DNA from: Methylobacterium sp. NMS14P
Lineage (GTDB): Bacteria > Pseudomonadota > Alphaproteobacteria > Rhizobiales > Beijerinckiaceae
Length of the DNA: 64,000 nt
Reading direction: 5' to 3'
NCBI RefSeq assembly: GCF_028583545.1
Contig: NZ_CP087107.1
Span: forward strand, 1-64,000
The notes below the pieces were generated by a model. The model was given only the letters and a program-made list of their open reading frames with translations. It made no database searches and was not told the origin of the DNA. Each line of letters starts with the position of its first letter. The stretch's first letter is position 1. The translations under genes were made by a program, and so were the position numbers. This document shows positions 41,921 to 59,265 of this stretch, piece by piece.

Positions 41921-42508
41921 TCAGTTGCATCCAATGTTGCCACAGAGCGAGTTGGTTGCATTGAGCGACACGGACGGGCTCGCCCCTCCGCGCAGCACGT
42001 TCAGGGCACTCTTGGCTTCTTCGTTGTCGGGCTTCAGACGAAGAACTTCCTCGTAATCTCGAATCGCCGCCTGCGTGTTTCCGAGCGTGACATTAGCCTT
42101 CGCCCTATTGATGAGCGTGTTCGAGAAGGTCGGCCGCATCGCCAGCGCGCGGTTGAAGTCCGCGATCGCGGCGGTCGGGTTCTGCAAGCCCGCGTAGGCG
42201 ACCCCGCGATTGTGGAAGGCGTAGGGGTACTGATCGTCCGCCCGGATGGCGCCGTTGCAATCCGTCAGGGCGTCCGCGAACGCGCCCCGGTCGATATGCG
42301 CCCAGCACCGTCCATCGAGGGCGATCGCCCGCTGCCGCGGCGTCCGGGCCTCGGCGAGGAGGCGGCTGCACCCGCCGACGCGCGTCTCCGGGCTCCCGGA
42401 CCGACAATCCTGTGCGGGATCGGCCAGAGCGGAGGAACACGGGAGCGCCATCGCGGCGATCAGGCCGGCGTGCACACAGGCGGTGAGGGCGAGCAAGGGT
42501 GCGCGCAT
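41921..42508 (-). CDS. Secreted TPR-repeat protein, end of the Srf-like locus
   Basis: This 195-residue protein has a probable signal peptide (about residues 1-27, hydrophobic to SSALA) and two to three TPR units. They include YPYAFHNRGVAYAGLQNPTA, AIADFNRALAMRPTFSNTLI and QAAIRDYEEVLRLKPDNEEA. The tail contains SLCGNIGCN with two cysteines. It follows the caspase-like gene by 44 bp on the same strand. A periplasmic scaffold role is an inference from TPR content and context. Confidence 0.75.
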   Translation of the reverse strand: MRAPLLALTACVHAGLIAAMALPCSSALADPAQDCRSGSPETRVGGCSRLLAEARTPRQRAIALDGRCWAHIDRGAFADALTDCNGAIRADDQYPYAFHNRGVAYAGLQNPTAAIADFNRALAMRPTFSNTLINRAKANVTLGNTQAAIRDYEEVLRLKPDNEEAKSALNVLRGGASPSVSLNATNSLCGNIGCN

Positions 42509-42552
42509 GATCGATCGGTCCTGCTTCCGGCTTCTCGGGCGGCCCATCGGTC

Positions 42553-44334
42553 TCAGCCGCAGCGATTGTTGAAGACGTCGCGGTTGGGCAGCTGCATCGA
42601 GTTCATCATGCGGAGCAGTTCGGCCCGGTACAGGTCGCTGAACTCGGCGGGGAAACGGCCGCCGATATTCGTGATCGTGCTGCGGTCGTCGCGCCGGATC
42701 GTCGCGAAGTCGTAGAAGCCTCTGTCGTCGAAGCTGTTCTGCGCGACCGCGGTGCCGCGACCTTCGAGCACGAACCCGGCGCGGACCGGCGAGGTATTGA
42801 CCTCCTGAGCGCGGCTGATCTGGCTCCGTCGCGGCCGGATCTGCTCCGTGATGAACTGTTGCGCGCTGCCGCACCGCTCGTTCGGGCTGACCTGCACGTA
42901 CATCACGACCTGCTCGCCGTGCTGCCGCGAGTGCCAGATCGTCGTGTAGGTCTGCTTCTGCGGATCGTACTGGTCGTTGGCCAGCGGCGAGATCTCGAGC
43001 AGGTTGGTCGAGTAGTTCAGCGTCCAGCCGGAGGCGCTTCCGACCGTGGTGCGCTGCTGCAGCTCACGCTGGCGCCGCTCCTCCTCCAGGCGGCGCTGCT
43101 CGTCCTGCTCCCGCTGGCGTCGGGCGTCGGCCCATTGCCGATCCATCTCCTCCTGCCGTCTCCGCCTGTCCTCCTCCTGACGCCGGGCCTCGTCCGCCTG
43201 CTGGCGGCGGGCCTCGTCCTGGCGATCCCGCGTGCGGCCGCACTCGACCGCGAAGGTGTCGACAAGGGCGCGGAAGCGCCCAGCCGGGTAGGACGCGCTG
43301 TAGCTCGCGGTGGCCGTGGGATCGTCGCAGGAGGCGACGGCACGCTGATAGGCCCGCTGCTCCCGCCCCGCCTGGAGCCGGTCCTCGAAGGGACGGGCAT
43401 AGGGATAGGTCCCCGTCATCGCCTCGCAGCCGCGGATCGCGGCATCGAGATTCACCCCGCGCAGCGCGGCCGGCTCGGCATTCGGGTCGATCTTGTTGCA
43501 CTCCGTCCGCAGGCCCGCGAAGAACCCTTGCGGGATGAAGGCGAACGACGTGGTGAGCGCGCCGCTCGCCCGGGGTTCCAGATCGCTGCCGGCGAGGCCC
43601 CGCTTCAGAGTTTCGTGCGACTGCAGAAAGGTCTCGCCCTCCTGCGCCATCGCGGCGAGCATGGGATCGCGCAGCGAGGCGCGGCCCGCGAGCGGCGCGC
43701 CCGAGGCAGTGCGGCGGCCGGCGCGCTCGGCGCCGATGACGCTCGCCCCGGAAGTCCCCGCCGCGGCATCGAAGTCGCAACGCCCGCCCGCCGCGGATTG
43801 ACACTCGTCGATCACGGCGACGAGTTCGCGGGTCCGGCGTCGGGCGACGCGGCGCAGCACGTCGCTCAGCCGCACGCCCTCGCTGTCGAGCAGGCCCGGG
43901 CGCTGTCCGGCGTCGGCCGGGGTGTCCTGCGGCAGGAGATAGACGTCGTCGGCGCCGCCGATGGTCGGCCCGAGGGCGAAGACCGCCACCTGGGCGTCCT
44001 CCGGCAGGCGGCCGACGGCCTCGCGCAGTCCGCGATCCAGCTGCGGGCGGTCGGCCGGGCCGACCGTCCACACCTCGAAGCCGATGTCGCGCAGGCGCTT
44101 GCGATAGGCCTCCTCGTCGGCGTTGGCCGTCGCCGCCCGTCCGCCGGACGCCGCGGCTTGCGGCACGATCAGCAGCGCGATCCGCTGCCCGGTGACGGCG
44201 CTGCTGCGCGCGGCGGCGGCCTGGACCGTCAGGCCGGGCGAGGCCGCGTGCCCGCCGGTGGCGGCGGCGACACCGAGCGCGGTCGCGGCGGCCAGGCGCC
44301 TCCAGCGACGGCCGGTTCGGGCGGGCGGGGCCAT
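42553..44334 (-). CDS. Caspase-fold-like secreted protein apparently lacking the catalytic histidine
   Basis: This 593-residue protein has a signal-like N-terminus (GRRWRRLAAATALGVAAATG). A region resembling a p20 caspase/peptidase C14 domain follows (about residues 50-260), with RIALLIVP, LRDIGFEV, VAVFALGPTIGGADDVYLLP and LVAVIDECQSA. The cysteine of the dyad appears to be Cys178 in DEC, but where caspases have GHG this protein has GPT. A glutamate/arginine-rich coiled coil (about 400-460) and a C-terminal globular domain follow. ATG at 44334 (GAGG upstream) fits the signal. An earlier in-frame ATG at 44406 shares a base with the TGA of the upstream gene (TGATG coupling) and is a real alternative. 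It may be a pseudoenzyme or scaffold. Confidence 0.72.
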   Translation of the reverse strand: MAPPARTGRRWRRLAAATALGVAAATGGHAASPGLTVQAAAARSSAVTGQRIALLIVPQAAASGGRAATANADEEAYRKRLRDIGFEVWTVGPADRPQLDRGLREAVGRLPEDAQVAVFALGPTIGGADDVYLLPQDTPADAGQRPGLLDSEGVRLSDVLRRVARRRTRELVAVIDECQSAAGGRCDFDAAAGTSGASVIGAERAGRRTASGAPLAGRASLRDPMLAAMAQEGETFLQSHETLKRGLAGSDLEPRASGALTTSFAFIPQGFFAGLRTECNKIDPNAEPAALRGVNLDAAIRGCEAMTGTYPYARPFEDRLQAGREQRAYQRAVASCDDPTATASYSASYPAGRFRALVDTFAVECGRTRDRQDEARRQQADEARRQEEDRRRRQEEMDRQWADARRQREQDEQRRLEEERRQRELQQRTTVGSASGWTLNYSTNLLEISPLANDQYDPQKQTYTTIWHSRQHGEQVVMYVQVSPNERCGSAQQFITEQIRPRRSQISRAQEVNTSPVRAGFVLEGRGTAVAQNSFDDRGFYDFATIRRDDRSTITNIGGRFPAEFSDLYRAELLRMMNSMQLPNRDVFNNRCG

Positions 44335-44405
44335 GTCGGGGATCCTCGGCATCGGAGGGGGTGAAACGCGCGGGCGGACGGGCATCGTGGGGTGCGTCGG
44401 GGCCA

Positions 44406-45416
44406 TCAGGGACGACAGATCGCCCGGAGGCGGTCGCTGGCGGCGTTGCCCTCGCACAGCGCCCGGAGCGCCTCGGTGTGGCGGGGGGAGCGGTTGCGCC
44501 ACAGGGCGTAGTAGTAGGCGGCCCGCACGATGTCGGGCCGCGCCGCCTCGCGGTACGCCGCGTCGGCGTTGCCGGGGTCGTAGAAGCGCGCGAGCTGCCA
44601 GGCCGCGTCCGCGCTCGTGACCGGATCGGCCTCCTCGAACGCGCGGAAGGCCGCGCTCCCCTGCCGGGAGGCGAGCGCCGTCTCGCCGAGCGCCAGGAAA
44701 GCGCCGGCCGGCGCGCGCTCGTCGACGAGGCGGGCGTAGCGCTGCCGCAACTCAGCGGCCGTCAGGCGGGAATCCGGCTCGGGAGGCGCGGGCGGCGGGC
44801 CCGGCTCCTGGGGGGGCGCCTCGCGCCGGGCCACGAGGTCGGGCAGCTGGTCGCGGTACAGGTAGGCGCCGCCCGCGGCCAGCGCGAGGAGCATCAGCGC
44901 CACCAGCGGCCAGAGCAGCCGGCTCTTGCGCGCGGGCGGCTCGGGCGCCGGCGGAGCCGCGGGTGCGGCGTCCTGCGGCGGGGCCGGCCCCGGTTCCGGG
45001 ACCGGCACGGCCTCGGCGACCGGGACGGCCGGACCGCCGGTCCCGTCCCGGGTCAGCGTCGGAGCCGGTGCCGGAAGGCCGGCGAGGATGCCCCCGCCGG
45101 ACGGCGCGGGCGAGATAGTCGGCCACGCGACCACGCCGAAGGAGGTGCCGTCCTGCGCGACGATCTCGATCGGGACCAGCTCCTCGATGCGGTCGACGAC
45201 GTTGGGGCCGAAGCGCGCGACGGCCCGCCCGTCCCGCTCGGTCACCGCGAGCGGCGCGAGCCACGCGACCTCCGGCTGCCAGCCCTCCGCCCCGAGATGC
45301 CGCGGCTCGGTATCCTGGCGACGGAACGAGAGCAGGGGCGACGCCAGCGGGCGACCGAGATCGATGAAGGCGTAGCCGCCGGACTCGTCCTCGTCCTCGG
45401 TGATGCGGATCGTCAT
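44406..45416 (-). CDS. Single-span membrane protein with Sel1-like C-terminus (Srf-like locus)
   Basis: I do not recognise this 336-residue protein by family. Residues 1-125 form a beta-rich cytosolic region (GGYAFIDLGRPLASPLLSFR, VPIEIVAQDGTSFGVVAWP). A proline/alanine-rich linker and one transmembrane helix (about 192-213, LLWPLVALMLLALAAGGAYL) follow. The C-terminal helical region reads AAWQLARFYDP and PDIVRAAYYYALWRNRSP, resembling Sel1 repeats. ATG at 45416 is 52 bp after the SrfC-like gene. Its stop codon overlaps a possible start of the caspase-like gene, so the two are probably coupled. Confidence 0.7.
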   Translation of the reverse strand: MTIRITEDEDESGGYAFIDLGRPLASPLLSFRRQDTEPRHLGAEGWQPEVAWLAPLAVTERDGRAVARFGPNVVDRIEELVPIEIVAQDGTSFGVVAWPTISPAPSGGGILAGLPAPAPTLTRDGTGGPAVPVAEAVPVPEPGPAPPQDAAPAAPPAPEPPARKSRLLWPLVALMLLALAAGGAYLYRDQLPDLVARREAPPQEPGPPPAPPEPDSRLTAAELRQRYARLVDERAPAGAFLALGETALASRQGSAAFRAFEEADPVTSADAAWQLARFYDPGNADAAYREAARPDIVRAAYYYALWRNRSPRHTEALRALCEGNAASDRLRAICRP

Positions 45417-45468
45417 GGCGAAGGCTTCTTGGGCAAAGCGGGGCAAGCGGGTGGAGCGGGCGAAGCGG

Positions 45469-48084
45469 TCAGGCGGCACGCGCCTGGAGACCGGCGAGGA
45501 TCGCGCCGATCCGGGCGTTCTGCGCGAGGTCGACCGTGACGCCGGACGCGCTCTTGGCGTTGTCCTCGACGACCCGGTAGAAGCCGTGGAACCAGTCGGT
45601 GGCGTAGGTATGGGCGAAGGTCGCGGGGGCCTGCCCGATGCTGCGGGCATCGTAGCTGACCGGCCGCTGGGCGAAGGCGACCCGATCCCCCGCCTCGTCC
45701 TGGATCGCGGGGCGCTCGCCGGCCGGCGGGACGAGGGTGAACCCGAGGCTGCCGGTCAGCCGGTTGAGGCGGGTCGCGGCGATAAGCGCGAGCTTGACCG
45801 TCGACTGCTCGGAGCGCTCGACGGTCGCCAGGTCCCGCAGGTCGGACGCGATGCCACCCTCGATATCGGCCCGTCGGGCCAGGACGATCAGCTCGCTGAC
45901 CACGATCTCCAGGGCGGTCAGCGGGACGGCGAAGCGGCGCGCGAAGTCCTCGGCCTCGATCGTGCGGCGCAAGGCCCCGATCCAGGCGGCGACCACGGCC
46001 CGCGCCATCGCGCGCTCCCGGTCGCTGCCCGGGCTCGACGCCTCGACCCGGGGCGTCGGCGCCGCGCCCGGCCGCGGGATCGCCCCGGGGCGGGCGATGC
46101 GCGGCGCCGCGACGGGGAGCGCGGCCTCGGTGGTCGCGCCCTCGGCCCCGTGCAGGGCGTGCGCGAGCGCCGCGGGGTCCACCATGAGCGCCCGCAGGAG
46201 CGAGCCGAACTGGCCGGCCGCCACGACCCCGTCGAGCGCGTCGAAGACCTGGCCGGCCGCCTCGCGCCGCTCGGCCAGCCGCGTCTCGATGTCGAGGGCG
46301 ACGTGGAAGCGGGCGAGCCGCTCCCGCATCTCGGCGCGCAGGGCCTCCAGCCGGGAGGCGATCTGCTGCGCCTTCAGGGCCGGTCGGCAGACCCGCGACA
46401 GGTTCTCGACGAGGTAGCTCACGCCGCCGTCGTTGAGGCGGAGGGCCTCGTCGAAGGCGCGGCCCGGATCCACGAAATGCGCGGTCGCCTCGGGTAGGGC
46501 GGCGAAGCCGGCGCGCAGCTCGGCGATCCGCTCCTGCTTCTCGGGCAGGAACGCCACCTCGCGCCGCCCGTCGTAGCGGATGACCGATTCCGCCGGGTAG
46601 TTCGGGTTCCGGAACCAGTAGGTGTTGCGGAACGGCGCGCCCGGGATCCACTGCCGCGGCCACGTGTGCGCCTTCCCGAAGAATCCGAGCAGCGAGGCCT
46701 CGATCCGGTTGCGGAAGCGCAGGCCCGCATCCTGGCCGACGTCGCCGGCCTTGTCGACGAAGTGGCTGTCGAACCACGTGAGCACGAGGAACAGCAGGTT
46801 CGGCAGCTGCGCCCGCGCCTCCGGGCTCGATCCGTGCGTGAGCGTGATCCAGCGCTCCACGAGGTCGGGCAGCGTCACGACCTCCTGGTTGGAGGGGCGG
46901 ACGCACAGCATCATCGCTGTCAGCTCCTGCTCGGCGACGTAGCGGTCGAACAGGTAGGCGACCTTGCCGCGCAGGAAGGTCTCCTTCAGCGCGTCCGGGT
47001 GCGCGGTCAGGAAGTGGGTCAGATCGACCTTCTGCCGGCTGCGGGCGCCGGGGAAGTCGAGTAGGTCCGCCTCCTGCAGGAAGGCCCGGGGCGTGTCGGC
47101 GATCTCGATGCGCAGCTCCGCGGTGATCGCCGCCACCGTGGCGCGCGCCAGCGTGACGGCCCGGCCGCCGGCCGCGTGCACCGTCAGGGTATCGTCCGAG
47201 CGGGCGGCCCCGAGACCCGCCAGGGTCGCCACATCGAGGATGCTGCCCTCGCGGGGCACCAGAGCGGCGAGCGGCGCGAAGATCTCCTCCGGATGGTCGA
47301 GGCGTTCCAGCGCCTCCGCGAGCTGGCGGTAGAGGGCCGTGAAGGCCGCGTGGCCGCCCCAGAGCGGCGCGAACAGGCGGGCGCGCCCGTCGAGGTCGAG
47401 GCTCCCGGCCAAGCTGCGGGCCTCGTCCCAGTAGCGGGCGAGATCGTCGAGGGGCCGCGTGCCGCGGGCCTGGTCGCGCACGTAGTCCTGCAGGTCGTCG
47501 ATCGCGACGTCGCCGAAGCGCGACGTGCCGGGTCGGGCCTGCGCCTTCAGGCTCGCCAGCAGCGCCGAGATGGCCTCGGGGTCCGGCGGCGTCTCCTTGG
47601 TGGCGTCGCCGTCGTGCAGGAAGGTGTTGCACAGGACCTTGACGAGATCGGCCTCGCTGAGGACCCGCAGGCGGACCGGCGCGCCGGGCGGCGTCCGCCC
47701 GGCCGGGGCTCCCGCACCGGCCGTGAAGCGGGTGACCAGCCCCGTGGCCTCCTTCTCGCCGATCGGGTTGATCTCGGCCAGGAAGTCGACCGGCTCGTGC
47801 CCGTCGAAGCGGGCCCGCAGGGCACCGTCCTCCGGACGCGCCAGGACCTCGACCAGGTAGGATTTGCCCGCCTGGCTCGGCCCGAACACGCCCGCGCACA
47901 TCGGCCGCGCCGCCGCGCGGGCCAGCCGCTCGGCCCGGTTGGCCGCCTTCCGGACGTAGCGGATGAGATCCGCGCGCTCCCGTCCGACCGCGCCGGCATT
48001 GGCCGCGTCGCCGAGCCACTGCTCGGCGTCCTCGGCCAGCCGACCCGTGGTCCTGCAATCCTGCGCCAGATGTTCGGTCGACAT
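45469..48084 (-). CDS. srfC: SrfC-like P-loop protein (putative virulence factor family), possible GTPase
   Basis: This 871-residue protein matches the SrfC (Virul_Fac) family in length, in gene order after SrfB and in its N-terminal P-loop, GPSQAGKS at residues 68-75. A candidate G3 motif DFPG is at 343-346 (DLLDFPGARSRQ), followed by a region that could hold G4 (LVLTWFD). This pattern would make it a large, possibly dynamin-like GTPase; that is an inference. Long helical stretches make up much of the C-terminal half. Its ATG is 8 bp after the SrfB stop. srfC was named in Salmonella as an SsrB-regulated gene, but its biochemical role is not established. Cytosolic, no signal. Confidence 0.85.
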   Translation of the reverse strand: MSTEHLAQDCRTTGRLAEDAEQWLGDAANAGAVGRERADLIRYVRKAANRAERLARAAARPMCAGVFGPSQAGKSYLVEVLARPEDGALRARFDGHEPVDFLAEINPIGEKEATGLVTRFTAGAGAPAGRTPPGAPVRLRVLSEADLVKVLCNTFLHDGDATKETPPDPEAISALLASLKAQARPGTSRFGDVAIDDLQDYVRDQARGTRPLDDLARYWDEARSLAGSLDLDGRARLFAPLWGGHAAFTALYRQLAEALERLDHPEEIFAPLAALVPREGSILDVATLAGLGAARSDDTLTVHAAGGRAVTLARATVAAITAELRIEIADTPRAFLQEADLLDFPGARSRQKVDLTHFLTAHPDALKETFLRGKVAYLFDRYVAEQELTAMMLCVRPSNQEVVTLPDLVERWITLTHGSSPEARAQLPNLLFLVLTWFDSHFVDKAGDVGQDAGLRFRNRIEASLLGFFGKAHTWPRQWIPGAPFRNTYWFRNPNYPAESVIRYDGRREVAFLPEKQERIAELRAGFAALPEATAHFVDPGRAFDEALRLNDGGVSYLVENLSRVCRPALKAQQIASRLEALRAEMRERLARFHVALDIETRLAERREAAGQVFDALDGVVAAGQFGSLLRALMVDPAALAHALHGAEGATTEAALPVAAPRIARPGAIPRPGAAPTPRVEASSPGSDRERAMARAVVAAWIGALRRTIEAEDFARRFAVPLTALEIVVSELIVLARRADIEGGIASDLRDLATVERSEQSTVKLALIAATRLNRLTGSLGFTLVPPAGERPAIQDEAGDRVAFAQRPVSYDARSIGQAPATFAHTYATDWFHGFYRVVEDNAKSASGVTVDLAQNARIGAILAGLQARAA

Positions 48085-48092
48085 GCGTGATC

Positions 48093-51000
48093 TCAATCCA
48101 GGGCGAGGATGCCGGTATCGAGCCAGTATCCCTGCTCCGAGGCCAGGGTATCGAGCACGAGCTCGATCTTGCGTCCGACGTCGAGACCGTCCGCGTCGTA
48201 GGCGTCGGTGATCTCGAACTCTTCCTTCAGTGATTCCGAGCGCAGCAGGGCGTCCGGCCCCTCGTCGTCGGGCCGGCCGTCGCCGCTGCGCTCCAGGGTG
48301 ATCTCGAGGGGCAGCCGCAGCTTCGCCGCCTCCTGGCCGGCGCGCATCCGCAAGCGGTAGAGCGGCGTCGCGATCCAGCGCTCCACCGGCAATTGCCGGT
48401 ACCCCAGGCGCATCGGCGCGTAGTACCGGAGCTTCGCGCTCATCGCCGGTCCCTGGCGCCGGGCCGAGGCCGTGGCGTCGAGATCGACCTCGCGGAAGAC
48501 CAGGCCGGCGTCGCGGAGCTGGCCGCTCAGCTCCAGCTCGCCGATGTAGCGGGCCGTGGAGCGCAGCGCGAGGCGGCGGGTGAACAGGGTGAAGTTGGTG
48601 AGCTGGCCCTCCGCGAGCGCGCAGAGCATGCCGCCCACCGCCGTGGTGGTCTTGGGATCGCCGATGCGGCGGTTGTCCCGCTCCCGGAACGGGTACCACG
48701 TGCCGGCCTGATACTGGTGGAGCGGCACGATCCGGTCCGGCGAGACCGCCAGCTTGTCGACGAGGCAGTCGACGAACGCCTGGAGCCGGGACGGGCGGCC
48801 CGAGAGCAGCACCACGTCGACGTCGAGGGCGTGCACGGCCTCGCACAGGTTGTCGAGGACGAGGCCGAGCGTCGCGACCACGCAGGCGCCGACCACGTCG
48901 GCCCGGCTCTCGAAGACGCAGTCGGTCAGGGCGAAGTCCGCCGCGCCGCCGGCGCGGGCCGGGATCTCGAGGAAGTCGAGCAGGCGCTGCTGCGGCAGGG
49001 CGCGGCGCAGGATCCGGCCGCCGCGTTCCGGGAAGAACTCGGCGAAGGGGCGGGCGGTGATTTCGGCGCCCGCCTCGACGTCGCCGAGGATGCGCAGGCC
49101 GATCGGCTCCAGCACCCGCGACACGAACTGCCGCCGCAGGTGCTTCTCCTGCTCGGCCATGTTGGCGCGGTCGCCGCCGAAGCGCTCCAGCAGCAGGGCG
49201 TGCGGGTCGGGATGCCCGGCCGAGCGCAGGGCCGCCTCGATCGTGGGCAGGACGAGGCGCTCGATCACCCGCTTCAGGATGTCGTCGCCGGCGATCCGGA
49301 ACCCCTCGCGGAAGTTCTGCACCGGTTTGATCGCCCGGTTGCCCTCCGCGTAGTAGGTCGTGATCATCAGGTCGGTGGTGCCGCCGCCGACGTCGATGCT
49401 GGCGATCCGCACCGACGGCTCCGGGCGTATCTCGGGGCCGGGCGCGGTGTCGGGCTCCGCGAAGGGCCGGGGGCGGCCGACGAGCCGCAGGAAGCCGTCA
49501 ACGGCGCCGCCGAGCTTCTGGGTGATCTCCCCGTACAGGTAGACGAACTGAACGCAGCTCGCCTCGTCCCACGCGACGTGGACCTCGGGCTGGGTCAGGC
49601 CGGGGGGCGGATTGTCGGCCCAGCCCATGAGCTGCCAGATGAGCTTCACCGCACCCTCGGCGCGGGACCGGAGCAGGCGCTGCTCCTGGACCGGCATGGC
49701 GGGCGGCAGGGTCAGGATGATCCGGCGCAGCTTGCGCGGGGCGTCCTTCGTGCGCCGGCGCTCGCGCACCCCGGCATTGTTGATGGTCGACAGGGCGTGG
49801 CAGACCACCTCGGCGACCATGAAGGTGAAGTAGGACGAGCGCGAGAAGGTCAGGCGCGAGGCGCCGACGCGGTCGTCCGGCAGGACCCGGATCCCGTAGC
49901 GCTTCCGGTCGGCGTCGAGCTGCGCGATGACGTCGCCGCGGCTGTTGACGAACTGCCGGATCGTGCGGTCGATCAGCGGGCTCGTCCCGTCGGCGCCGTA
50001 GTCGCGGTCCGGGAATCGCCATTCCTGGTTCACCGGGCGGACGTCGCACAGGTAGCGCTTCGGGCTCGACAGGCCGCCCACCGCCTCGGTGCCCTGAGCG
50101 AGCTCGCGGAACCGGCTGGCCTCGGGCCCGACCCGGACGGGGCTCGGCCAGAAGAACGCCCGCGGGCGCGCCGACAGGCGCGAGAGGTGATCGCGGCCGA
50201 ACCGGGCGTGCGACAGCTCGACATGGCTCTCGAACGGCTCGGTGTAGACCTGCTCGGGCTCGGACAGGTCGCGCAGCTGCAGCACGAACGAGTTGTTGAG
50301 GTCGACCCGGTCCTCGTTCGGGTGGGACTCGATCAGGATCCCGCAGGTGCGGCTGTTGCCGATGTCGAGGATCAGGTCGACCGTGACCGGCCGGATCGCC
50401 GGCTCGGCCGTCACCGTATCGGTCAGCCGCAGGGTCCGGGGCCGGACCGCCATCTGCAGGTACTCGAGGAAGACCAAGTAGCGGGCGTAGTGCTCGAGCG
50501 CGTTCGGGAAGTCCGTATCGCGCAGGGGGCGGTCCGGCCGCTGCGCCGCCTTGAACTCGCGGAACTGCTCCAGCAGCCAGGCGGGGACCCATTCCTGGAA
50601 GCCCGCCAGCCGGCGGGTCTCCTCGTCCTCCCCGGCGGCACCCAGGAACCAGCCGATGTCGCGGAAGCGATGGGCGAAGCGGAACTCGTGCTCGTTGGCG
50701 GCGTCCTCCAGGCACGGCGCCGTGTAGGGCCGGTTCGGGCGCCGCTCGAGCAGCTCGGTGTCGAAGGCGAAGATCACCCGGTGGCTGATCGGGCTGTCCG
50801 GCGCCCGGTCGGCGACCTCGACGATCCGCACGCGCGCCCAGTTGGTCGGTCCGAGGTCGAGTTCCTCGCCGCCCTCGACGCCGGCCTTGACCCGCAGCAT
50901 CGGCACCGGGGTCCATTTCTCCAGGAAGACCTCGAGGGCGCCGCGCTCGCCGACCGCGTATTCCCGGTCGTCGCCGCGCGCGGTCTCGACCGCCTCGGCG

Positions 51001-51203
51001 CCCGGGTCGTCCTCGTTCCAGGTCGGGAGCAGGCGGTAGGTCCGCCGCCCGTCCCCCTGGGGCGTGCCCGTGACCGCGCGCTCGACGAAGCGGCGGGACA
51101 GGCGCCCGACCGTGTCGATGTGGAAGGCGTATTCCACGAACTGGACGCCGCTGTGCGGGACCAGCCGGATCGTGGGGCCGAAGGGGACGGGATCGACGAA
51201 CAT
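48093..51203 (-). CDS. srfB: SrfB-like protein with actin/Hsp70-type ATPase fold
   Basis: This 1036-residue protein has the ASKHA nucleotide-binding motifs in order. Phosphate-1 DIGNSRTCGILIE is at residues 280-292, phosphate-2 IDVGGGTTDLM at 603-613, and an adenosine-type motif VVLLSGRPSRL at about 797-807. These, its size and the SrfC-like partner downstream identify the SrfB family. The first 270 residues are a separate domain of unknown role. ATP-dependent conformational switching on a client or polymer is expected from the fold. The gene starts 65 bp after the DUF2135-like membrane-protein gene. Cytosolic. Confidence 0.88.
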   Translation of the reverse strand: MFVDPVPFGPTIRLVPHSGVQFVEYAFHIDTVGRLSRRFVERAVTGTPQGDGRRTYRLLPTWNEDDPGAEAVETARGDDREYAVGERGALEVFLEKWTPVPMLRVKAGVEGGEELDLGPTNWARVRIVEVADRAPDSPISHRVIFAFDTELLERRPNRPYTAPCLEDAANEHEFRFAHRFRDIGWFLGAAGEDEETRRLAGFQEWVPAWLLEQFREFKAAQRPDRPLRDTDFPNALEHYARYLVFLEYLQMAVRPRTLRLTDTVTAEPAIRPVTVDLILDIGNSRTCGILIESHPNEDRVDLNNSFVLQLRDLSEPEQVYTEPFESHVELSHARFGRDHLSRLSARPRAFFWPSPVRVGPEASRFRELAQGTEAVGGLSSPKRYLCDVRPVNQEWRFPDRDYGADGTSPLIDRTIRQFVNSRGDVIAQLDADRKRYGIRVLPDDRVGASRLTFSRSSYFTFMVAEVVCHALSTINNAGVRERRRTKDAPRKLRRIILTLPPAMPVQEQRLLRSRAEGAVKLIWQLMGWADNPPPGLTQPEVHVAWDEASCVQFVYLYGEITQKLGGAVDGFLRLVGRPRPFAEPDTAPGPEIRPEPSVRIASIDVGGGTTDLMITTYYAEGNRAIKPVQNFREGFRIAGDDILKRVIERLVLPTIEAALRSAGHPDPHALLLERFGGDRANMAEQEKHLRRQFVSRVLEPIGLRILGDVEAGAEITARPFAEFFPERGGRILRRALPQQRLLDFLEIPARAGGAADFALTDCVFESRADVVGACVVATLGLVLDNLCEAVHALDVDVVLLSGRPSRLQAFVDCLVDKLAVSPDRIVPLHQYQAGTWYPFRERDNRRIGDPKTTTAVGGMLCALAEGQLTNFTLFTRRLALRSTARYIGELELSGQLRDAGLVFREVDLDATASARRQGPAMSAKLRYYAPMRLGYRQLPVERWIATPLYRLRMRAGQEAAKLRLPLEITLERSGDGRPDDEGPDALLRSESLKEEFEITDAYDADGLDVGRKIELVLDTLASEQGYWLDTGILALD

Positions 51204-51268
51204 CGCGGGAGACGGATCTCGTGTGGCGCGTGGCGGCGGGTCGGGGGGCGTTCTGGGCGGAGGGGTGG

Positions 51269-52645
51269 TCAGGGCACGGCCGCGCTCCCGGTCGGGGCCT
51301 GGGGGCCGCTCTGCGGCGGTGCCGCGATCGGCAGGTCGAAGGATAGAACGGCCTGCGCGACCCGCTCCGCCGAGATCCGGCCGGCGCGCTGCTCGACGAC
51401 CTCGCCGTGGCGCGAGAGGATGACCTGGAACGGGATCTCCGGCCTCGCCTCACCGTGACGCGCGAACAGCCCGACCTCGACGCCGTAGCGGCCCTCGGGG
51501 GCGGGGGCGTCGTCCCAGATCACGTGCTCCACCGGCCGGCTGGCGCTGCTCCCGCCCTTCTCGTTCTGGTCGGCCACGAGGCGGGCGCCGCAGGAGGCCC
51601 GGTGCTCGAAGCTGATGCGCGTGCGGTCCGGACAGACGACCTGGAGGTCGAGATCGGACGCGCCCTCCCACGCGAGCGTCAGTTCGAGACCCTGCCCGCG
51701 CTCGATGCCGGTGAGACGCCGCGCGAGGTCGGGCGGGATCACCTGCGGGGCCTCGCGCGCGGCCCGGCGCGGCGGCACCGGGCAGCTCGCGTCGCAGGTG
51801 AGCGCCCGGCGCGTGAGGGCGAGTTCGGCGGCCCGCACGGCGTCGTCCGTGGTCCGGATCGCCGCGAGGATCGCGCCGCCGTCGGGATCCAGGGCCACCG
51901 ACGGTGCGGGGCAGTGATCGGGCAGCGCCGCGCGCATCCAGGCGGGCCAGTCGCCGCTGCCGACGGCGCAGGCGCGCAGGAGCCGGTCCGCGAGGACGCC
52001 GCAGAGCAGGACGAAGACGAGCCAGAGGATCGGCGCGAGCCATGGCCGCCGCGCGGGCGCGAGCCGGGCGCCGGGCCGCGGGTCGGCCGCTCCGGCCGTG
52101 TCGGGCGGCGACGCCGGCGGCGGCGCCCAGGGGCTGGCCGGCGCTTCCACCGCCGCGGCGCTCGCCGTGATCGCGGCGCCGCGCGCGACGGCCGGGCCGT
52201 CCGAGCCCGCGCGCCGGTAGCCCCAGGCCACCAGGACCGGCTGGCCGTCGACCGACCACAGGTGGTCGGCGTCCGGGACAACGAGCGCGTCCCGCAGCAG
52301 ACGGGCGAGGTCGCGCGAGGCCTCGCCCTCGCGCTCCAGGCCGTCCGCGAAGGCGCTGATCTCGGCGACCAGACGGGCCGCGGTCTCGCGCAGGGTCGCG
52401 GCGGCGGCGGGATCGAGCGCGGTCACGGGCCGCGCGTCGCCGTCGACCGCGGCGAACCACGCGAAGCCGGGACGTCCGGTGCCGGCGACCGCGACGGGGG
52501 CGGGTTCGGCGAACAGGTGGGCGTGCGCCGGGCTCAGACGGCGCGCCAGCAGGTCGACGAGCTGCTCGTACTGCTGCGCGAGCTTCGGATTGACCGGGTC
52601 GAGGCCGAGGCGCGGCGTCTCGGTGAGCTTCGTGGTCGCGGACAT
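51269..52645 (-). CDS. Membrane protein: shared N-terminal domain, one helix, DUF2135-like C-terminal domain
   Basis: Residues about 20-145 of this 458-residue protein match the N-terminus of the protein encoded at 52658. Shared features are LFAEP, a tryptophan strand, LDPxxAxxLR, and xVPL/QPVLVxWG before a linker. A proline/alanine-rich linker and a transmembrane helix (about 202-222) follow. The periplasmic part has LTLAWEGASDLDLQVVCPD and GRYGVEVGLFARHG, typical of the DUF2135/YfaP-like beta-sandwich. By gene order it occupies the SrfA place. It is 12 bp after the protease gene and 65 bp before srfB. Confidence 0.72.
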   Translation of the reverse strand: MSATTKLTETPRLGLDPVNPKLAQQYEQLVDLLARRLSPAHAHLFAEPAPVAVAGTGRPGFAWFAAVDGDARPVTALDPAAAATLRETAARLVAEISAFADGLEREGEASRDLARLLRDALVVPDADHLWSVDGQPVLVAWGYRRAGSDGPAVARGAAITASAAAVEAPASPWAPPPASPPDTAGAADPRPGARLAPARRPWLAPILWLVFVLLCGVLADRLLRACAVGSGDWPAWMRAALPDHCPAPSVALDPDGGAILAAIRTTDDAVRAAELALTRRALTCDASCPVPPRRAAREAPQVIPPDLARRLTGIERGQGLELTLAWEGASDLDLQVVCPDRTRISFEHRASCGARLVADQNEKGGSSASRPVEHVIWDDAPAPEGRYGVEVGLFARHGEARPEIPFQVILSRHGEVVEQRAGRISAERVAQAVLSFDLPIAAPPQSGPQAPTGSAAVP

Positions 52646-52657
52646 GGTGACGGCCCC

Positions 52658-54436
52658 TCAGCGTGCCGGCGGCCGGGCGTCGCGCCCCGGCCGTGGGGCG
52701 GTCCGCGCGTCCGGCCGCGGGGCCGTCTGGCCGGTCGGCGCGGCCGGTGCCGGGGCGGGCGGCGTCGCGGCAGCCTCGGCCGGCTCCGCCGCGGCGGTCG
52801 CCGCCGGGCGGGGCGTCGCCTGGAGATCGCAGGGACGGTCATCGACAGCCGCGGTCACGCCGGCGCCCGCCAGGAACGCCGCGAGACCGTCCGCGCCGAG
52901 GGCGTAGCGCGCGGTGACCGGCATGCGGTCGTCCGTGCGGCCGAAGGCGTTCACGCCGACGACGCGGCCGCAATAGTCGACGAGCGGGCCGCCGCTGTTG
53001 CCCGGCGCGATCTCGGCCCCGTGCAGCACCAGCGTCACGGCGGCCTCGTCGTAGCGCTGCAGGTGGTTGACCACGCCGGTCTGGACCACCGGGACCAGGT
53101 CGCGGCTCGCCGCGGCGTCGCCGTCCCGGAGGCGCGCGAAGGTCGGGTCTGTGCCGAGATAGAGGCCCGGGAACCCGGCCGCGACCACCGGCGTCAGCGG
53201 GCGGCCCGGCTTCGCGAGGGCGAGGGGCCGCCCCCCCGAGCGCGGCGGGACCCGCAGCAGGGCGAAGTCGGTCAGGGTACCCGGAGCGCCGACCTGCACC
53301 AGGGTCGCCGGAGCGACGCCGGCGTGCCGCCCGGCGATCATCAGCGTCGAGGCGCCCTCGACGACGTGGCGATTGGTGACGACGAGATCGTCCGCGACGA
53401 AGAACCCCGAGCCGGTGGCGTCGCCGGCCAGGACCAGGACCGTGCTGCGCTCCAGCCGGTCGACCAGCCCGTCGGTGGCCGGCGCGCCGGGCCGGCCGGA
53501 TTCTGCCGGTGGCGCCGACGGCTCGACGGCGGCGCGGGCCGCGGGCGGCGCCGCCGGATCCGTGGGCAGGCGCACGCCGGCGGGGCTCTGCGGAACGAGC
53601 CCGGGCAGTTCCGTCCGGAGGCGGGGGCAGGCGAAGCCGTCCGCCGCGGCGAGGGCGTCGCGCCGCCGGCGAAGACCGTTGAGCCAGGCCGTCTGGAAGG
53701 CCCTGGACTCGGCCGAGACGGCTTGGGGCAGCGGCGGGAAGACCAGAACGCCCGGCACGTAGGAGAGCGCGACCAGGGCCGCCGCGATCCCGGCCGCGAC
53801 GACCGGCGCGATGCTGCCGCGCCAAGCCGGCCGGGCGGGAACGCCGAGCCGCGGTCCGGGCGACGCCTCCTGGCCGGCCGGGGCCGCCGGCTCGAAGCGG
53901 GCGGCCCAGTCCTCACGGTCGACCGGCGGATAGGGGAGGTGACCGGGGGCGACCGCGCCTAGCGTCGACGCGTAGTGGCGCACGCGTCCGCGCTCGTCCG
54001 CGGCCAATCCCTGAGGGAGCAATCCCCAGTCGACGAGGAGCGGGACGTCCCCGACCGCCAGCACGGCGGACGGTCCCGCGAGATTGAGGCACGCCGCCGC
54101 GAACGCGCCCGCCTCGCGGTCCCGCAGCGCCGGCTCCAGCGCCGCCAGCGCGGCGCCGAGGCGGTGCCTGAGGTGGACGGCGCTGTCCGGATCGAGGTCG
54201 GCCAGCAGCCGGATCGGACCTTCGAGATTCGTGTACCAGTCCACGCGCGCCGGGGCCGCCCCGTTGCTGCGCGAGATGACCGGCTCGGCGAAGAGTTCGG
54301 CAGCGGCGTCGCCGCCGTGCTGGCGCAGAACCCGCCGCAGCCGGTCATAGGACTCGATGACCGGCCGGTCGTCGGTGCGGACGGCATCCAGTCCGGCCAG
54401 CGTCCGGCTGGCGACGAAGCGCGTGGCGCCGGTCAT
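52658..54436 (-). CDS. Membrane-anchored trypsin-like serine protease with the shared N-terminal domain
   Basis: This 592-residue protein has an N-terminal domain (about residues 20-145) related to the one in the 51269 gene product. A transmembrane helix (about 209-236, IAPVVAAGIAAALVALSYVP) leads to a periplasmic S1/HtrA-like protease domain (about 325-540). The triad is complete: His357 in VVTNRHVVEG, Asp390 in TDFALL and Ser481 in APGNSGGPLV. No PDZ domain is seen, which separates it from DegP. A cytosolic sensor linked to an outward protease is the likely design. It is 33 bp after the Sel1 gene and 12 bp before the next gene. Confidence 0.85.
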   Translation of the reverse strand: MTGATRFVASRTLAGLDAVRTDDRPVIESYDRLRRVLRQHGGDAAAELFAEPVISRSNGAAPARVDWYTNLEGPIRLLADLDPDSAVHLRHRLGAALAALEPALRDREAGAFAAACLNLAGPSAVLAVGDVPLLVDWGLLPQGLAADERGRVRHYASTLGAVAPGHLPYPPVDREDWAARFEPAAPAGQEASPGPRLGVPARPAWRGSIAPVVAAGIAAALVALSYVPGVLVFPPLPQAVSAESRAFQTAWLNGLRRRRDALAAADGFACPRLRTELPGLVPQSPAGVRLPTDPAAPPAARAAVEPSAPPAESGRPGAPATDGLVDRLERSTVLVLAGDATGSGFFVADDLVVTNRHVVEGASTLMIAGRHAGVAPATLVQVGAPGTLTDFALLRVPPRSGGRPLALAKPGRPLTPVVAAGFPGLYLGTDPTFARLRDGDAAASRDLVPVVQTGVVNHLQRYDEAAVTLVLHGAEIAPGNSGGPLVDYCGRVVGVNAFGRTDDRMPVTARYALGADGLAAFLAGAGVTAAVDDRPCDLQATPRPAATAAAEPAEAAATPPAPAPAAPTGQTAPRPDARTAPRPGRDARPPAR

Positions 54437-54469
54437 GGCCGCACCGCCCGCGCTGCCCGCGACCGCCGG

Positions 54470-55120
54470 CTAATCACAGCGCACACCCGTGCCGGTGCCG
54501 TCGAGTTCGAGACGCACGAGCGCGTCCCGCGCCTTCGCGGTGCCGCGCTCGGCGGCCTTCACGTACCAGGCCCGGGCCGCCGCAGCGTCGGGGGAACCGC
54601 CGATCCCGTTGTCGAGGGCGACCGCGTAGCAGTACATCCCTTCCGGAATGCCCGTCGCGGCCGCGTCGCGGAACCAAGCGCGCGCCTTGGCATCGCTCTT
54701 CTCGAACCTGCGACCCTGCTGGTAGAGGATGCCGATATTGACCTTGGCCGCACCGCTGCCCAGTTCGGCCGCGCGCCGGTAGGCCTCGAAGGCATCGTTG
54801 TTCGCGCCCTGACGGTCGTAGGCGCGGCCGAGCTGGAAATGGAGCCGCCGCAGCCGCGGGGCCTCGGCAACCGCCGCCCGGCACGCCGCTACGGCCGCGC
54901 CGGCGCGTAGATCCCGGAAGTTGACGGTCCGCTGCGCGTCGGGGGCATCCGGATCCCACGGAGCGCTCGCGAGACGGTCGCAGGACTGAACAGCCCCGAC
55001 GCCCGGATCGCCGTCGTGCGCAGAGGACACGCCACAGGAGAGAGAACCGACCACCACAAGAAGTCCAATACTTACCGTAGATCTCAGCCTGTTCTCGCTA
55101 GAACTGCTCAAGGTCGGCAC
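54470..55120 (-). CDS. Secreted Sel1-like repeat protein
   Basis: This 216-residue protein has a signal-like N-terminus (about residues 12-35). Sel1/TPR-type repeats follow: FQLGRAYDRQGANNDAFEAY, AAKVNIGILYQQGRRFEKSD, AKARAWFRDAAATGIPEGMY and AARAWYVKAAERGTAKARDA. The start is GTG at 55120 with a weak ribosome binding site. It is the first gene of the tightly spaced Srf-like run, followed 33 bp later by the membrane protease gene. Sel1 proteins are usually adaptors; the partner is not visible. Confidence 0.8.
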   Translation of the reverse strand: MPTLSSSSENRLRSTVSIGLLVVVGSLSCGVSSAHDGDPGVGAVQSCDRLASAPWDPDAPDAQRTVNFRDLRAGAAVAACRAAVAEAPRLRRLHFQLGRAYDRQGANNDAFEAYRRAAELGSGAAKVNIGILYQQGRRFEKSDAKARAWFRDAAATGIPEGMYCYAVALDNGIGGSPDAAAARAWYVKAAERGTAKARDALVRLELDGTGTGVRCD

Positions 55121-55352
55121 CAGAGGGTCTCTCGAACACGATCGCTGCTTTCCACTTACGCGCCCGCAGGTTAACGTGTCTACAATCTTAAGTGGTTAAG
55201 ACGCGCGCGCTGAGATTGCGTGCGAAAACTCAAGGTGATTGTCGTGGGCCGTGGCAGGCTCGCCACATGCGGACCGGGGATCCCCCATCGCGGGGCGGTG
55301 CCGCCAGAGTGGTCGGCTGCCGGAGAGCGGCCCTGTTACGGCAGAGCCGGCC

Positions 55353-56534
55353 TCAACGGCAGGTGATCTGAACCGTGAAGTCGCGAGCCTTCTCGGCGAT
55401 CGCGGCGCCGTCCATCGGGTCCGTCATGCGCACGTTGATCGGCGCCTCGACGCCGTTCGCCTCGAGGAAGTTGAGGGCGATCGTGGACTTGATGGCGAAG
55501 TTGACGTTCTGCGGCACGTCGCCGGAGGCGAACGCGACCTGCTTGGATTGCACCACCCCGATCACGTTGCCGAACTGGTCGAGGGCCGGTCCGCCGCTGT
55601 TACCCTGCTGGACCGGCGCCGAGATCTGGATCTTGCGGGTGTCGTCGCCCGAGCCCGCCGTCGCGGTGACGCTGCCGATCGTGAAATTTCCCGTCGAGGC
55701 CAGGACGTTGCTCTGCGGATAGCCGTAGACGTAGACGCTCTCGCCGAGTCGCGCCCGGATCGAGAGCGGCGGCACCACCTTCTGCGGAAAGTCGGTGGTG
55801 AGCACCGCGAGGTCGTTGGCGGCGTCCCGGGCGACGAGACGGGCCCGGAGGGCGGTATGGCCGGGCTGCTGCACGGAGATGTCCGAGCACGCCTCGACCA
55901 CGTGGTTGTTGGTCAGCAGGTGCCCGCGTTCCGACACGTAGAAGCCGGTTCCGGTGCTGGTCATGCCGGCCTCGAGCTTGCGCGGGTTATCGGGCGCGGG
56001 CTCCGCCTTCGCGGCGGCTGTCGTCACGTCCTTCTGGCAGCCGATGACGGCGTCGAACGCCTCCGTGGACCCGACGAGTGACAGCACGGCGATCTGCCGC
56101 CCTTTGAAGATCACGTTGATGCTGCCGGACTCGGACAGGTCGGCCACGAAGCGTTCCTTCAGTCCCGACTGGTACAGCCCGTGCGCGTCGCCGCGCTCGA
56201 AGCCCGTGAACGTCCCGTGCCACTTCTGGCGGCCCGCGATCATGTGGAGCTCGTACTGTCCGCCGACCTCGAGCGAGCGCCACTTGGCGTTGGTGAGGGC
56301 CAGGTACGACGCGCCGCGGGCACCGTTGAAGCCGAACCACAGCGTCGTCCCGTCCCCGTAGCTCGCCGCCGCCAGGCAGCCGCCGAGGCTCTCGCTGTAG
56401 CCGATGGACCAGCCCGCGACCTTGCCGAAGCTCTTGTCGACCGTCAGCTTCGGGGGCGCGGGCGAGGCCGCGGTGGGTTGAGCCACGCCGCCGACGGCCG
56501 CCAGAACGGCGAGGGCAACCTTCATGCGAGACAT
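55353..56534 (-). CDS. Secreted trypsin-like serine protease
   Basis: This 393-residue protein has a signal peptide (about residues 1-23). An N-terminal domain (about 30-165) with two cysteines (CLAAASYGDG and VIGCQKD) precedes a trypsin-like domain. The triad is His211 in LLTNNHVVEAC, Asp241 in ANDLAVL and Ser313 in QQGNSGGPAL. No PDZ domain. The protease domain resembles that of the membrane-anchored protein at 52658 in motifs, but the front domains are unrelated. A gap of 232 bp separates it from the Sel1 gene, so it may be a separate unit of the same locus. A second in-frame ATG lies three codons downstream. Confidence 0.87.
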   Translation of the reverse strand: MSRMKVALAVLAAVGGVAQPTAASPAPPKLTVDKSFGKVAGWSIGYSESLGGCLAAASYGDGTTLWFGFNGARGASYLALTNAKWRSLEVGGQYELHMIAGRQKWHGTFTGFERGDAHGLYQSGLKERFVADLSESGSINVIFKGRQIAVLSLVGSTEAFDAVIGCQKDVTTAAAKAEPAPDNPRKLEAGMTSTGTGFYVSERGHLLTNNHVVEACSDISVQQPGHTALRARLVARDAANDLAVLTTDFPQKVVPPLSIRARLGESVYVYGYPQSNVLASTGNFTIGSVTATAGSGDDTRKIQISAPVQQGNSGGPALDQFGNVIGVVQSKQVAFASGDVPQNVNFAIKSTIALNFLEANGVEAPINVRMTDPMDGAAIAEKARDFTVQITCR

Positions 56535-56569
56535 GCGCGTCGATCCGGCGTGCGTCCTGGAAGTGGTTC

Positions 56570-56956
56570 TCAGCGCGTCTGGTTGACCGAGGTCGTGGCG
56601 TTGCCCCGCGGCGAGGCGAAGGGGTCTGCCGACGCGTTGACCACCTGCGCGCCCGTCGGGCCGGCGGCGGGCTGCATGGGCTGGCGGTTCGCGCGAACGA
56701 CCTTCCGCCGCGGGGCTGGCACGCGCCGCACCTCGTGGATGACCCGGACGGTACGGCGCGGCGCGGCGTAGACGACCACGGGGCGCTCGCGCGCCGCCTG
56801 CGCGGCAATCGAGCCCGCGATGACGCCACCGAGGACGCCTCCGGCCAAGCCGCCGAACACGGCGCCCGCACTCTGAGCGTGAGAGGGCGTCGGCGCCAGA
56901 CCCAGTACGATGACCGCGCCGGCTGCACCGGCCGACAACAGGAAACGCCCTCGCAT
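56570..56956 (-). CDS. Small exported glycine-zipper protein
   Basis: This 128-residue protein has a signal peptide (RGRFLLSAGAAGAVIVLGLA, cut after SHA) and then a glycine-zipper segment AGAVFGGLAGGVLGGVIAGS. A basic middle part and a low-complexity tail end it. ATG at 56956 is preceded by GAGGGTGAG. Glycine zippers usually insert in or bind a membrane. It lies 35 bp upstream of the secreted protease gene on the same strand and may be cotranscribed. Confidence 0.72.
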   Translation of the reverse strand: MRGRFLLSAGAAGAVIVLGLAPTPSHAQSAGAVFGGLAGGVLGGVIAGSIAAQAARERPVVVYAAPRRTVRVIHEVRRVPAPRRKVVRANRQPMQPAAGPTGAQVVNASADPFASPRGNATTSVNQTR

Positions 56957-59145: not shown

Positions 59146-59154
59146 TTGAAGTCG

Positions 59155-59265
59155 ACAGAGCCGGTCCACCGCTACGCCCAGGCGCGTGGCGGCGAGCTGG
59201 AGATCGAGAGCGCGGCCGAACGCGGGACGGTGGTCCGGCTCCATCTGCCGGGCGCGGTGCCGTGA
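59155..59265 (+). pseudogene. Remnant of a histidine-kinase ATPase domain
   Basis: The last 30 or so codons before the TGA at 59263 read RYAQARGGELEIESAAERGT and VVRLHLPGAVP. This is the typical end of a HATPase_c domain (G-box to final strand). Nothing upstream in this frame continues the domain, because the DNA there is the opposite-strand efflux-pump remnant. It is a truncated leftover. Confidence 0.6.

What the first reader, a model, noticed from the sequence alone, without database searches (positions are those of the whole stretch)
41921..56956. An Srf-type locus packed with proteases: SrfB ATPase, SrfC P-loop protein, two trypsin-like proteins and a caspase-like protein
Seven to eight minus-strand genes with gaps of 8-65 bp combine an actin/Hsp70-fold ATPase, a possible GTPase, a membrane-anchored serine protease, a caspase-fold-like protein and Sel1/TPR adaptors. 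A second secreted trypsin-like gene and a glycine-zipper gene lie just upstream. srfABC genes are known from Salmonella and other proteobacteria, but their function is not established. Inference: NTP-dependent sensing in the cytosol controls proteolysis in the envelope, for stress response, interbacterial conflict or defence.
Basis: partly seen in the sequence, partly recalled or inferred. Interest (0 to 1): 0.8.

Follow-up and report, generated by a model that had tools for sequence, protein, structure and literature searches.

The report
Srf membrane machine with protease adaptors
A 15-kilobase gene cassette encodes an Hsp70-like ATPase, a dynamin-like GTPase and membrane proteins that share one docking domain but carry different outer parts, one of them a protease; this gives the poorly understood SrfABC family a testable mechanism.

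Summary
Window 41921-56956 is a conserved minus-strand unit of ten genes. Three close relatives share the same ~15 kb block but not its flanks; all genes are under purifying selection.

SrfB and SrfC are clear family members. SrfC has GTPase motifs, and its AlphaFold model (pLDDT 89) matches bacterial dynamin-like protein first. The membrane-anchored trypsin is a SrfA relative: it and its neighbour share an N-terminal domain (SrfA_N). In 145 non-redundant proteins this domain carries trypsin (33), DUF2135-like (41), other beta domains (41 and 11), vWA (7) or nothing known (12). In 385 class genomes, the 22 with SrfA_N are exactly the 22 with SrfB; some copies lie away from srfB.

The trypsins keep their triad. 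The caspase is degenerate: histidine lost, cysteine kept. Caspase-like, Tryp2, Sel1, TPR and glycine-zipper genes are local additions; many other loci carry a vWA-ABC-FtsX-FGE module instead.

Best reading: an NTPase-driven inner-membrane machine that assembles or activates SrfA_N-tagged exported domains, here a protease. Physiological role unproven; no clear defence-island signal. The tag-gene association was reported in 2013.

The parts
41921..42508 (-). TPR protein with N-terminal signal-like segment (195 aa)
   Evidence: TPR_1 57.5 bits; dN/dS 0.10-0.17 within genus, dS near saturation in two pairs; matched in all 5 genus loci with SrfB
42553..44406 (-). Caspase-like protein, degenerate: Cys kept, His lost; export by a signal-like N-terminus is inferred by eye; long charged region and C-terminal part
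   Evidence: HMM of two true C14 proteins finds it at E 2.4e-15; His column P, Q or A, Cys kept in all eight
44406..45416 (-). P3: N-terminal domain, one TM, C-terminal repeats; conserved gene after srfC
   Evidence: own HMM (clusters 10/14 plus this protein) finds P3 in the slot after srfC in 22 of 37 sampled and 50 of 54 named loci; no Pfam family above cut-off
45469..48084 (-). SrfC, dynamin-superfamily GTPase (871 aa)
   Evidence: PF10139 754 bits; GxSQxGKS and DFPG in 53 of 53 rows, G4 aspartate invariant, here TWFD; model pLDDT 89; Foldseek top hit BDLP, E 2e-5
48093..51203 (-). SrfB, actin/Hsp70-fold ATPase (fold recalled from motifs, not modelled)
   Evidence: PF07520 899 bits; DxGN...CG and DxGGGTTDL invariant in the 7 rows of A1
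51269..52645 (-). SrfA1: SrfA_N domain + TM + DUF2135-like exported domain
   Evidence: NCBIfam SrfA_fam 54.7 bits over residues 27-148, below its cut-off of 150; SrfA_N HMM; DUF2135 weak, in 4 of 33 rows, not in this protein
52658..54436 (-). TrySrfA: SrfA_N domain + TM + trypsin-like domain with intact His-Asp-Ser
   Evidence: Trypsin_2 72.3 bits; SrfA_fam 24.3 bits over residues 7-143, below cut-off; triad HDS in 47 of 47 rows
54470..55120 (-). Sel1/TPR protein with signal-like N-terminus (start uncertain)
   Evidence: Sel1 32.2 bits; dN/dS 0.15-0.31
55353..56534 (-). Tryp2: probably secreted trypsin-like protein without SrfA_N, triad intact
   Evidence: Trypsin_2 93.5 bits; HDS; dN/dS 0.05-0.10 in four relatives, 0.37 in L197
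56570..56956 (-). Small glycine-zipper-like protein
   Evidence: matched in 4 of 5 genus loci, dN/dS 0.03-0.16; the glycine-zipper name is by eye
41921..57329 (-). Whole cassette: block shared between genomes while flanks differ

Best explanation
The locus is a protease-bearing variant of the SrfABC system. SrfB (Hsp70/actin-fold ATPase) and SrfC (dynamin-like GTPase) form a cytosolic machine at the inner membrane. SrfA proteins are its membrane adaptors or clients: each has the same cytosolic SrfA_N domain, a membrane segment and an exchangeable exported domain. I infer that SrfBC bind SrfA_N and use nucleotide cycles to cluster, assemble or switch these proteins, so that the exported domain (here a trypsin-type protease beside a beta-sandwich binding domain) acts in the periplasm. 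P3, TPR, Sel1, Tryp2 and the pseudo-caspase would be scaffold or control parts; the local ones may stand in for the vWA-ABC-FtsX-FGE module found in other loci. Shown: gene content, shared domain, co-occurrence, triad, motifs, dynamin-like model. Inferred: docking, topology, direction of control, and the biological trigger.
For: SrfA_N HMM: 157 proteins in 89 loci, no hit in reversed sequences. Exported parts of 145 non-redundant SrfA_N proteins: DUF2135-like 41, LC 41, trypsin 33, third beta (BS) 11, vWA 7, none 12. A hydrophobic segment follows the domain in 144 of 145. SrfB in 22 of 385 class genomes, SrfA_N in the same 22 and no other at E 1e-5. SrfA_N genes away from srfB, e.g. 2.9 Mb away in G333 and four on another contig in G746. 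Trypsin within 3 kb of SrfA_N in 12 of the 17 genomes whose SrfA_N loci I held, of 22 SrfB genomes; background 113 domains in about 63.8 Mb. SrfC model and fold match. Published co-immunoprecipitation of Xenorhabdus SrfA, SrfB and SrfC (PMC6950479, passages). Cassette unity and selection.
Against: No binding, nucleotide or protease activity was measured. The N-side of the first segment is more positive in only 80 of 144 proteins (33 ties, 31 opposite), and 29 have more than one segment, so N-in topology is weakly supported. Neither SrfA-type protein reaches the NCBIfam SrfA cut-off. Foldseek TM-scores are low (0.14-0.25 of the query for the first eight hits), so only the GTPase kinship is safe. 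SrfB was not modelled and no PDB sequence match was found. In tblastn both protease genes of L192 split into two pieces, and L194 has a split P3 and one stop in the caspase-like gene. Sixteen of 16 sampled loci from other classes lack trypsin. Xenorhabdus work describes SrfABC as a cytotoxic complex, which fits this reading poorly.
Confidence: 0.55

Rival explanations
1. An envelope-stress protease pathway like DegS/HtrA: SrfBC sense membrane damage and the trypsins cut a regulator.
For: Trypsin domains match HtrA/MarP-type models below cut-off; the alternative vWA-ABC-FtsX-FGE module has a Lol/Mac/Dev-type ATPase; Salmonella srf mutants have a swarming defect (PMC4219756, passage).
Against: No PDZ domain and no sigma or anti-sigma family among the ten proteins in Pfam; no substrate known.
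Confidence: 0.2
2. SrfABC is a toxin or injected effector complex, and the neighbouring genes are its delivery or processing factors.
For: Published cytotoxicity of Xenorhabdus SrfABC to insect and HeLa cells (PMC6950479, part 1 of 4 and passages). SrfC once predicted an effector (PMC3608642, passage).
Against: SrfA proteins carry a membrane segment; SrfC is dynamin-like and SrfB has Hsp70-type motifs, usually cytosolic machines; records come also from soil, river water and root nodules; some SrfA_N genes are dispersed. I did not search for secretion genes.
Confidence: 0.12
3. A conflict or anti-phage system of the GTPase-Hsp70 type with trypsin and caspase-like effectors.
For: Such systems combine TRAFAC GTPases, Hsp70 and shared adaptor domains (PMC7159879, passages); patchy spread within the genus and partial copies.
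Against: PADLOC gives the locus only protease-domain matches (RT-Protease_XI, PDC-M35A) and weak others; no dominant defence family among 135 neighbours, though PbeA, RTasHel, GajB and mads_2 models match a few; 'srf' does not occur in that paper; the protease probably faces the periplasm.
Confidence: 0.1
4. Separate genes that merely neighbour each other.
For: Sel1 and glycine-zipper genes have no blastp counterpart in the other Srf loci compared; TPR and Tryp2 have only domain-level ones.
Against: Shared block with different flanks, shared SrfA_N domain, few trait changes on the tree.
Confidence: 0.03

Closest known systems
SrfABC operon (Salmonella, Xenorhabdus; SrfB PF07520, SrfC PF10139, SrfA NF040486)
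   Same: srfA-srfB-srfC order; SrfB and SrfC far above Pfam cut-offs
   Different: Two SrfA_N proteins, one with a trypsin domain; pseudo-caspase, P3, TPR, Sel1 and a second trypsin around it
srfABC with tagQRST/ppkA and a Hap-like gene in Deltaproteobacteria (PMC3608642, passages)
   Same: srfBC core; a Hap-like neighbour, which may be the same protease slot (my guess: trypsin lies beside srf in L170 and L175)
   Different: This genome and eight relatives searched have no match to the vWA protein of the alternative module
Bacterial dynamin-like proteins (BDLP), mitofusin, Drp1
   Same: SrfC fold match and GTPase motifs
   Different: About 10% identity, low TM-scores, different partners
GTPase/Hsp70 conflict systems of Kaur et al. 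2020 (PMC7159879, passages)
   Same: Logic: NTPases plus adaptors with swappable effectors
   Different: No component compared by sequence here; membrane-bound and exported effectors
MarP/HtrA periplasmic serine proteases
   Same: Trypsin fold, hydrophobic anchor, intact triad
   Different: SrfA_N at the N-terminus; no PDZ found; below NCBIfam cut-offs

Membership tests
SrfB (PF07520) | Pfam gathering score 27.1 bits | tested here: met
   899 bits over positions 7-991 of 992
SrfC (PF10139 Virul_Fac) | Pfam gathering score 28.1 bits | tested here: met
   754 bits, positions 3-878 of 878
SrfA (NCBIfam NF040486) | Curated cut-off 150 bits over the whole protein | tested here: not met
   54.7 and 24.3 bits, N-terminal part only; homologous domain, not filed as SrfA equivalents
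Dynamin superfamily (SrfC) | G1, G3, G4 motifs in a dynamin-type G domain | tested here: met
   G1 and G3 in 53 of 53 rows; G4 [TS]xxD in all 52 rows printed, lysine in 42 of these, W here, Asp invariant in 53; Foldseek ranks 1-22 are dynamin-family entries, four at E 0.001 or better
Dynamin superfamily (SrfC) | GTP hydrolysis and membrane binding or remodelling | not testable with these tools
   -
Hsp70/actin fold (SrfB) | Fold of the ATPase domain | not tested
   motifs only; no model made
Caspase, peptidase C14 (PF00656) | Gathering score 21.4 bits | tested here: not met
   13.3 bits, though homologous
Caspase, peptidase C14 (PF00656) | Catalytic His-Cys dyad | tested here: not met
   His replaced by P, Q or A; Cys kept
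Trypsin-like S1 peptidase (PF13365) | Score over cut-off and His-Asp-Ser | tested here: met
HtrA/DegS | NCBIfam cut-off, PDZ domain | tested here: not met
   TIGR02037 51 and 80 bits against 416; no PDZ
T6SS threonine-phosphorylation (Tag/Ppk) module | ABC-FtsX-FGE genes and vWA partner in the locus | tested here: not met
   no vWA, FtsX or SUMF1 HMM hit among the window's ORFs; no match to the vWA protein in the whole genome
Known anti-phage systems (PADLOC) | System-specific model match | tested here: not met
   protease-domain matches to RT-Protease_XI (best E 2.5e-19) and PDC-M35A, weak mad8 and Avs1b; no reverse transcriptase in the ten proteins
SrfABC toxin | Cytotoxicity to animal cells | not testable with these tools
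   literature only

The most novel reading that the evidence does not exclude
SrfBC is a general Hsp70-dynamin machine of the inner membrane that services, in cis and in trans, every protein carrying the SrfA_N tag: a bacterial platform that displays exchangeable exported modules (protease, vWA, beta-sandwich binders), some encoded far from srfBC. The cassette studied here loads a protease and a pseudo-caspase regulator onto that platform.
Probability: 0.4. Interest if true: 0.85.

Novelty: new variant of a known kind. Interest (0 to 1): 0.7.

Why it matters
SrfB and SrfC carry virulence-factor names, and a 2013 paper says their function is still unclear (PMC3608642, passage). Here they become a dynamin-like GTPase and an Hsp70-type ATPase tied to a tag domain found in the same 22 genomes and in none of 363 others. 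The tag's exchangeable exported domains make the function directly testable: pull-down with the tag, GTPase assay, protease assay. It would link a dynamin-type GTPase to control of periplasmic proteolysis, which would be surprising in bacteria.

Tried and rejected
Active caspase: rejected, His absent. Defence island: not supported, not fully tested. Of 302 neighbour proteins I drew 145 at random, kept the 136 that fit a residue limit, left out one very long one (L097) and scanned 135; only the first 25 families of each list were shown, and the window's own neighbours were not among the 135. Empty site: homologues of the two flanks of L192 in 79 genus genomes; the left flank is found elsewhere (in the window's genome at C2:318 kb) and I saw no genome with both flanks side by side in the matches listed, so the mode of movement is open. 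Repeats at the block ends: nothing useful. Promoter and terminator scan: at chance level. PDB sequence searches for SrfB, SrfC, SrfA1 and the caspase-like protein: nothing significant. Structures of SrfA1 and of the caspase-like protein: not obtained. Whether SrfC's model resembles dynamins beyond the G domain: not resolved.

Rows dropped before counts: nine duplicate loci; L006, L048 and L049 (too short) left out of the sampled set; loci with under 4.5 kb upstream or 8 kb downstream left out of the relevant denominators. The named set is the best 80 of 502 confirmed stretches, less seven duplicates. A5 contains sequences of at least five of the 22 positive genomes (G000, G333, G746, G817, G618); one search scored at most 10 candidates per genome. 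The tree is a FastTree with long-branch warnings. The binomial figures assume independent loci, which they are not, and are not used.
Full report
What is there. Ten minus-strand genes fill window 41921-56956. SrfB (PF07520, 899 bits) and SrfC (PF10139, 754 bits) are certain; two trypsin-like genes, a Sel1 gene, a TPR gene and a weak caspase match are also found. Neighbouring genes are 65 bp apart or less, except 232 bp before the second trypsin.

It is one unit. Of 39 genus genomes given to (chosen partly for a caspase-like match), five carry SrfB, and all five have the caspase-like gene beside it. Four of these loci match all ten genes; L197 lacks a glycine-zipper match and has Tryp2 at the other end. 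Three of them match the window's DNA over 15.1-15.4 kb and show no other piece over 150 bp. Those three also share only about 15.2-15.3 kb with each other, with different flanks. So the block travels or survives as a cassette; no mobile element was identified and no empty site was found. Four further genomes hold parts of the block without SrfB: caspase-like and TPR genes with a P3 piece (L195), caspase-like and TPR at a contig end (L198), Tryp2, TPR and a caspase-like piece (L199), Tryp2 and a caspase-like fragment (L200). Within the genus dN/dS is 0.03-0.37 for all genes and 0.04-0.12 for SrfB. In tblastn both protease genes of L192 and P3 of L194 appear in two pieces, and the caspase-like gene of L194 has one stop, which may be error or decay.

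The trypsin is a SrfA relative. NCBIfam's SrfA model matches the N-terminal part of both upstream proteins, below its cut-off. A model built from these two proteins and iterated finds 157 proteins in 89 of the loci held, and none in reversed sequences. A hydrophobic segment follows the domain in 144 of 145 non-redundant members; the charge rule favours an inside N-terminus in 80, the opposite in 31, with 33 ties. Behind it sit different exported domains: DUF2135-like 41, another beta domain (LC) 41, trypsin 33, a third beta domain (BS) 11, vWA 7, none 12. LC, BS and vWA are models of my own; 'beta' is by eye, the vWA name is supported by the GenBank label of one member (L055), and the DUF2135 name rests on weak Pfam matches in 4 of 33 rows. 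The commonest pairing is DUF2135-like plus trypsin (21 loci); in others vWA (7) or BS (6) pairs with LC; 20 loci have one LC protein alone. This suggests alternative occupants of one slot.

The tag follows SrfB. In the 385 genomes of the class searched twice, SrfB occurs in 22 and SrfA_N in exactly the same 22. At least five of these contributed sequences to the SrfA_N alignment. Several SrfA_N genes are away from srfB: on the same contig but 2.9 Mb off in G333, on other contigs in G746 (four), G904, G833, G732 and G821; their exported parts are LC, BS or DUF2135-like. In G234 and G483 a srfA cluster with a trypsin fusion lies about 26 and 12 kb from srfB and was missed by the locus count.

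How common is the protease? Same-strand trypsin within 7 kb upstream: 9 of 38 loci from sampled genomes and 24 of 46 named nearest loci; none of the 16 sampled loci from other classes of the phylum (L084-L099, list). By genome, 12 of the 17 class genomes whose SrfA_N loci I held have trypsin within 3 kb, 6 of them fused; the other five of the 22 had no SrfA_N locus fetched. Background is 113 Trypsin_2 domains in 13 genomes of about 63.8 Mb. On a SrfB tree of 79 loci trypsin needs 5 changes and the vWA/FtsX module 6, against 20 or more in each of 200 shuffles. In the 27-row clade that holds the window, 24 have trypsin, and the other three (L051, L105, L120) keep a short SrfA_N protein without a known exported domain. 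All aligned trypsin domains keep His-Asp-Ser: 47 of 47 rows, the window's two entered twice.

The alternative module. Many loci continue after srfC with P3, a vWA protein, a Lol/Mac/Dev-type ABC ATPase, an FtsX-like permease (weak Pfam match) and an FGE-like protein: vWA in 17 of 37 and FtsX in 17 of 37 sampled loci, 43 and 43 of 54 named loci. The association of srf with tagQRST/ppkA and a Hap-like gene was reported for Deltaproteobacteria in 2013 (PMC3608642, passages), and T6SS-control genes beside srfABC were noted in Xenorhabdus (PMC6950479); I did not test kinship with the T6SS genes. The window's genome and eight relatives have no match to the vWA protein anywhere; two control genomes do. 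The Mesorhizobium plasmid instead has PAN and GH3 genes.

The caspase-like protein. True C14 proteins of the same order (L190, L191; Pfam 104 and 120 bits) align with it; the histidine of their GHG motif is P, Q or A in all eight sequences, while the cysteine stays. It is best called a pseudo-caspase. Among the Srf loci scanned it is found only in the window and L058, besides the genus loci.

SrfC is dynamin-like. Across 53 sequences G1 (GxSQxGKS) and G3 (DFPG) hold throughout; G4 keeps its aspartate, mostly TKFD, here TWFD. The model has pLDDT 89 and pTM 0.80. Foldseek ranks bacterial dynamin-like protein first (E 2.0e-5, probability 1.00), then Drp1, MxB, Fzo1 and mitofusin; TM-scores are low, so I claim kinship of the GTPase, not of the whole architecture. 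By sequence alone the profile finds no significant PDB match. SrfB's Hsp70/actin fold rests on its nucleotide motifs and recalled knowledge.

Mechanism. Xenorhabdus SrfA, SrfB and SrfC co-precipitate (PMC6950479, passages). With a tag domain found only where SrfB is, the simplest scheme is that SrfBC bind SrfA_N at the inner membrane and, by ATP and GTP cycles, cluster or switch the exported parts. Here one part is a protease. P3, TPR, Sel1 and the pseudo-caspase would tune it. Docking, topology, regulation and trigger are inferred.

What is in print. Searches for SrfB with SrfC (28 papers, 25 listed), srfABC (37, 25 listed), 'virulence factor SrfB' (8), SrfC with TagF (0), two of SrfB/Hsp70/SUMF1 (39, 12 listed), SrfA/SrfB/SrfC with periplasm (6) and SrfB/SrfC with serine protease (2) showed no listed title or abstract start on a modular SrfA domain or a dynamin-like SrfC. 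Four papers were opened, in part. Many subscription papers are not held, so this is not proof of novelty.

Noticed in passing
L101:15682-18068 and beyond: A Rhodoblastus locus has further genes downstream of srfC that cluster with SrfA proteins; two carry the DUF2135-like domain without SrfA_N.
   Followed up: partly
L121-L124, L128, L133 upstream of TrySrfA: Conserved upstream genes include a haem-NO-binding protein and a diguanylate cyclase: a possible NO/c-di-GMP link.
   Followed up: no
L050, L051, L102, L120: Rhizobial Srf loci share a gene cluster that is PAN-domain in L050, with a GH3 glycosidase annotated in L050 and L051.
   Followed up: no
L195, L198, L199, L200: Partial copies of the cassette in genus genomes without SrfB.
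   Followed up: partly
window 58069-59448: Upstream of the cassette an ORF contains a piece that looks like an RND pump fragment, probably decayed (by eye).
   Followed up: no
L192: Both protease genes split into two pieces in tblastn.
   Followed up: no
plasmids collection: SrfB matches 141 plasmid records, 114 of them Klebsiella.
   Followed up: no
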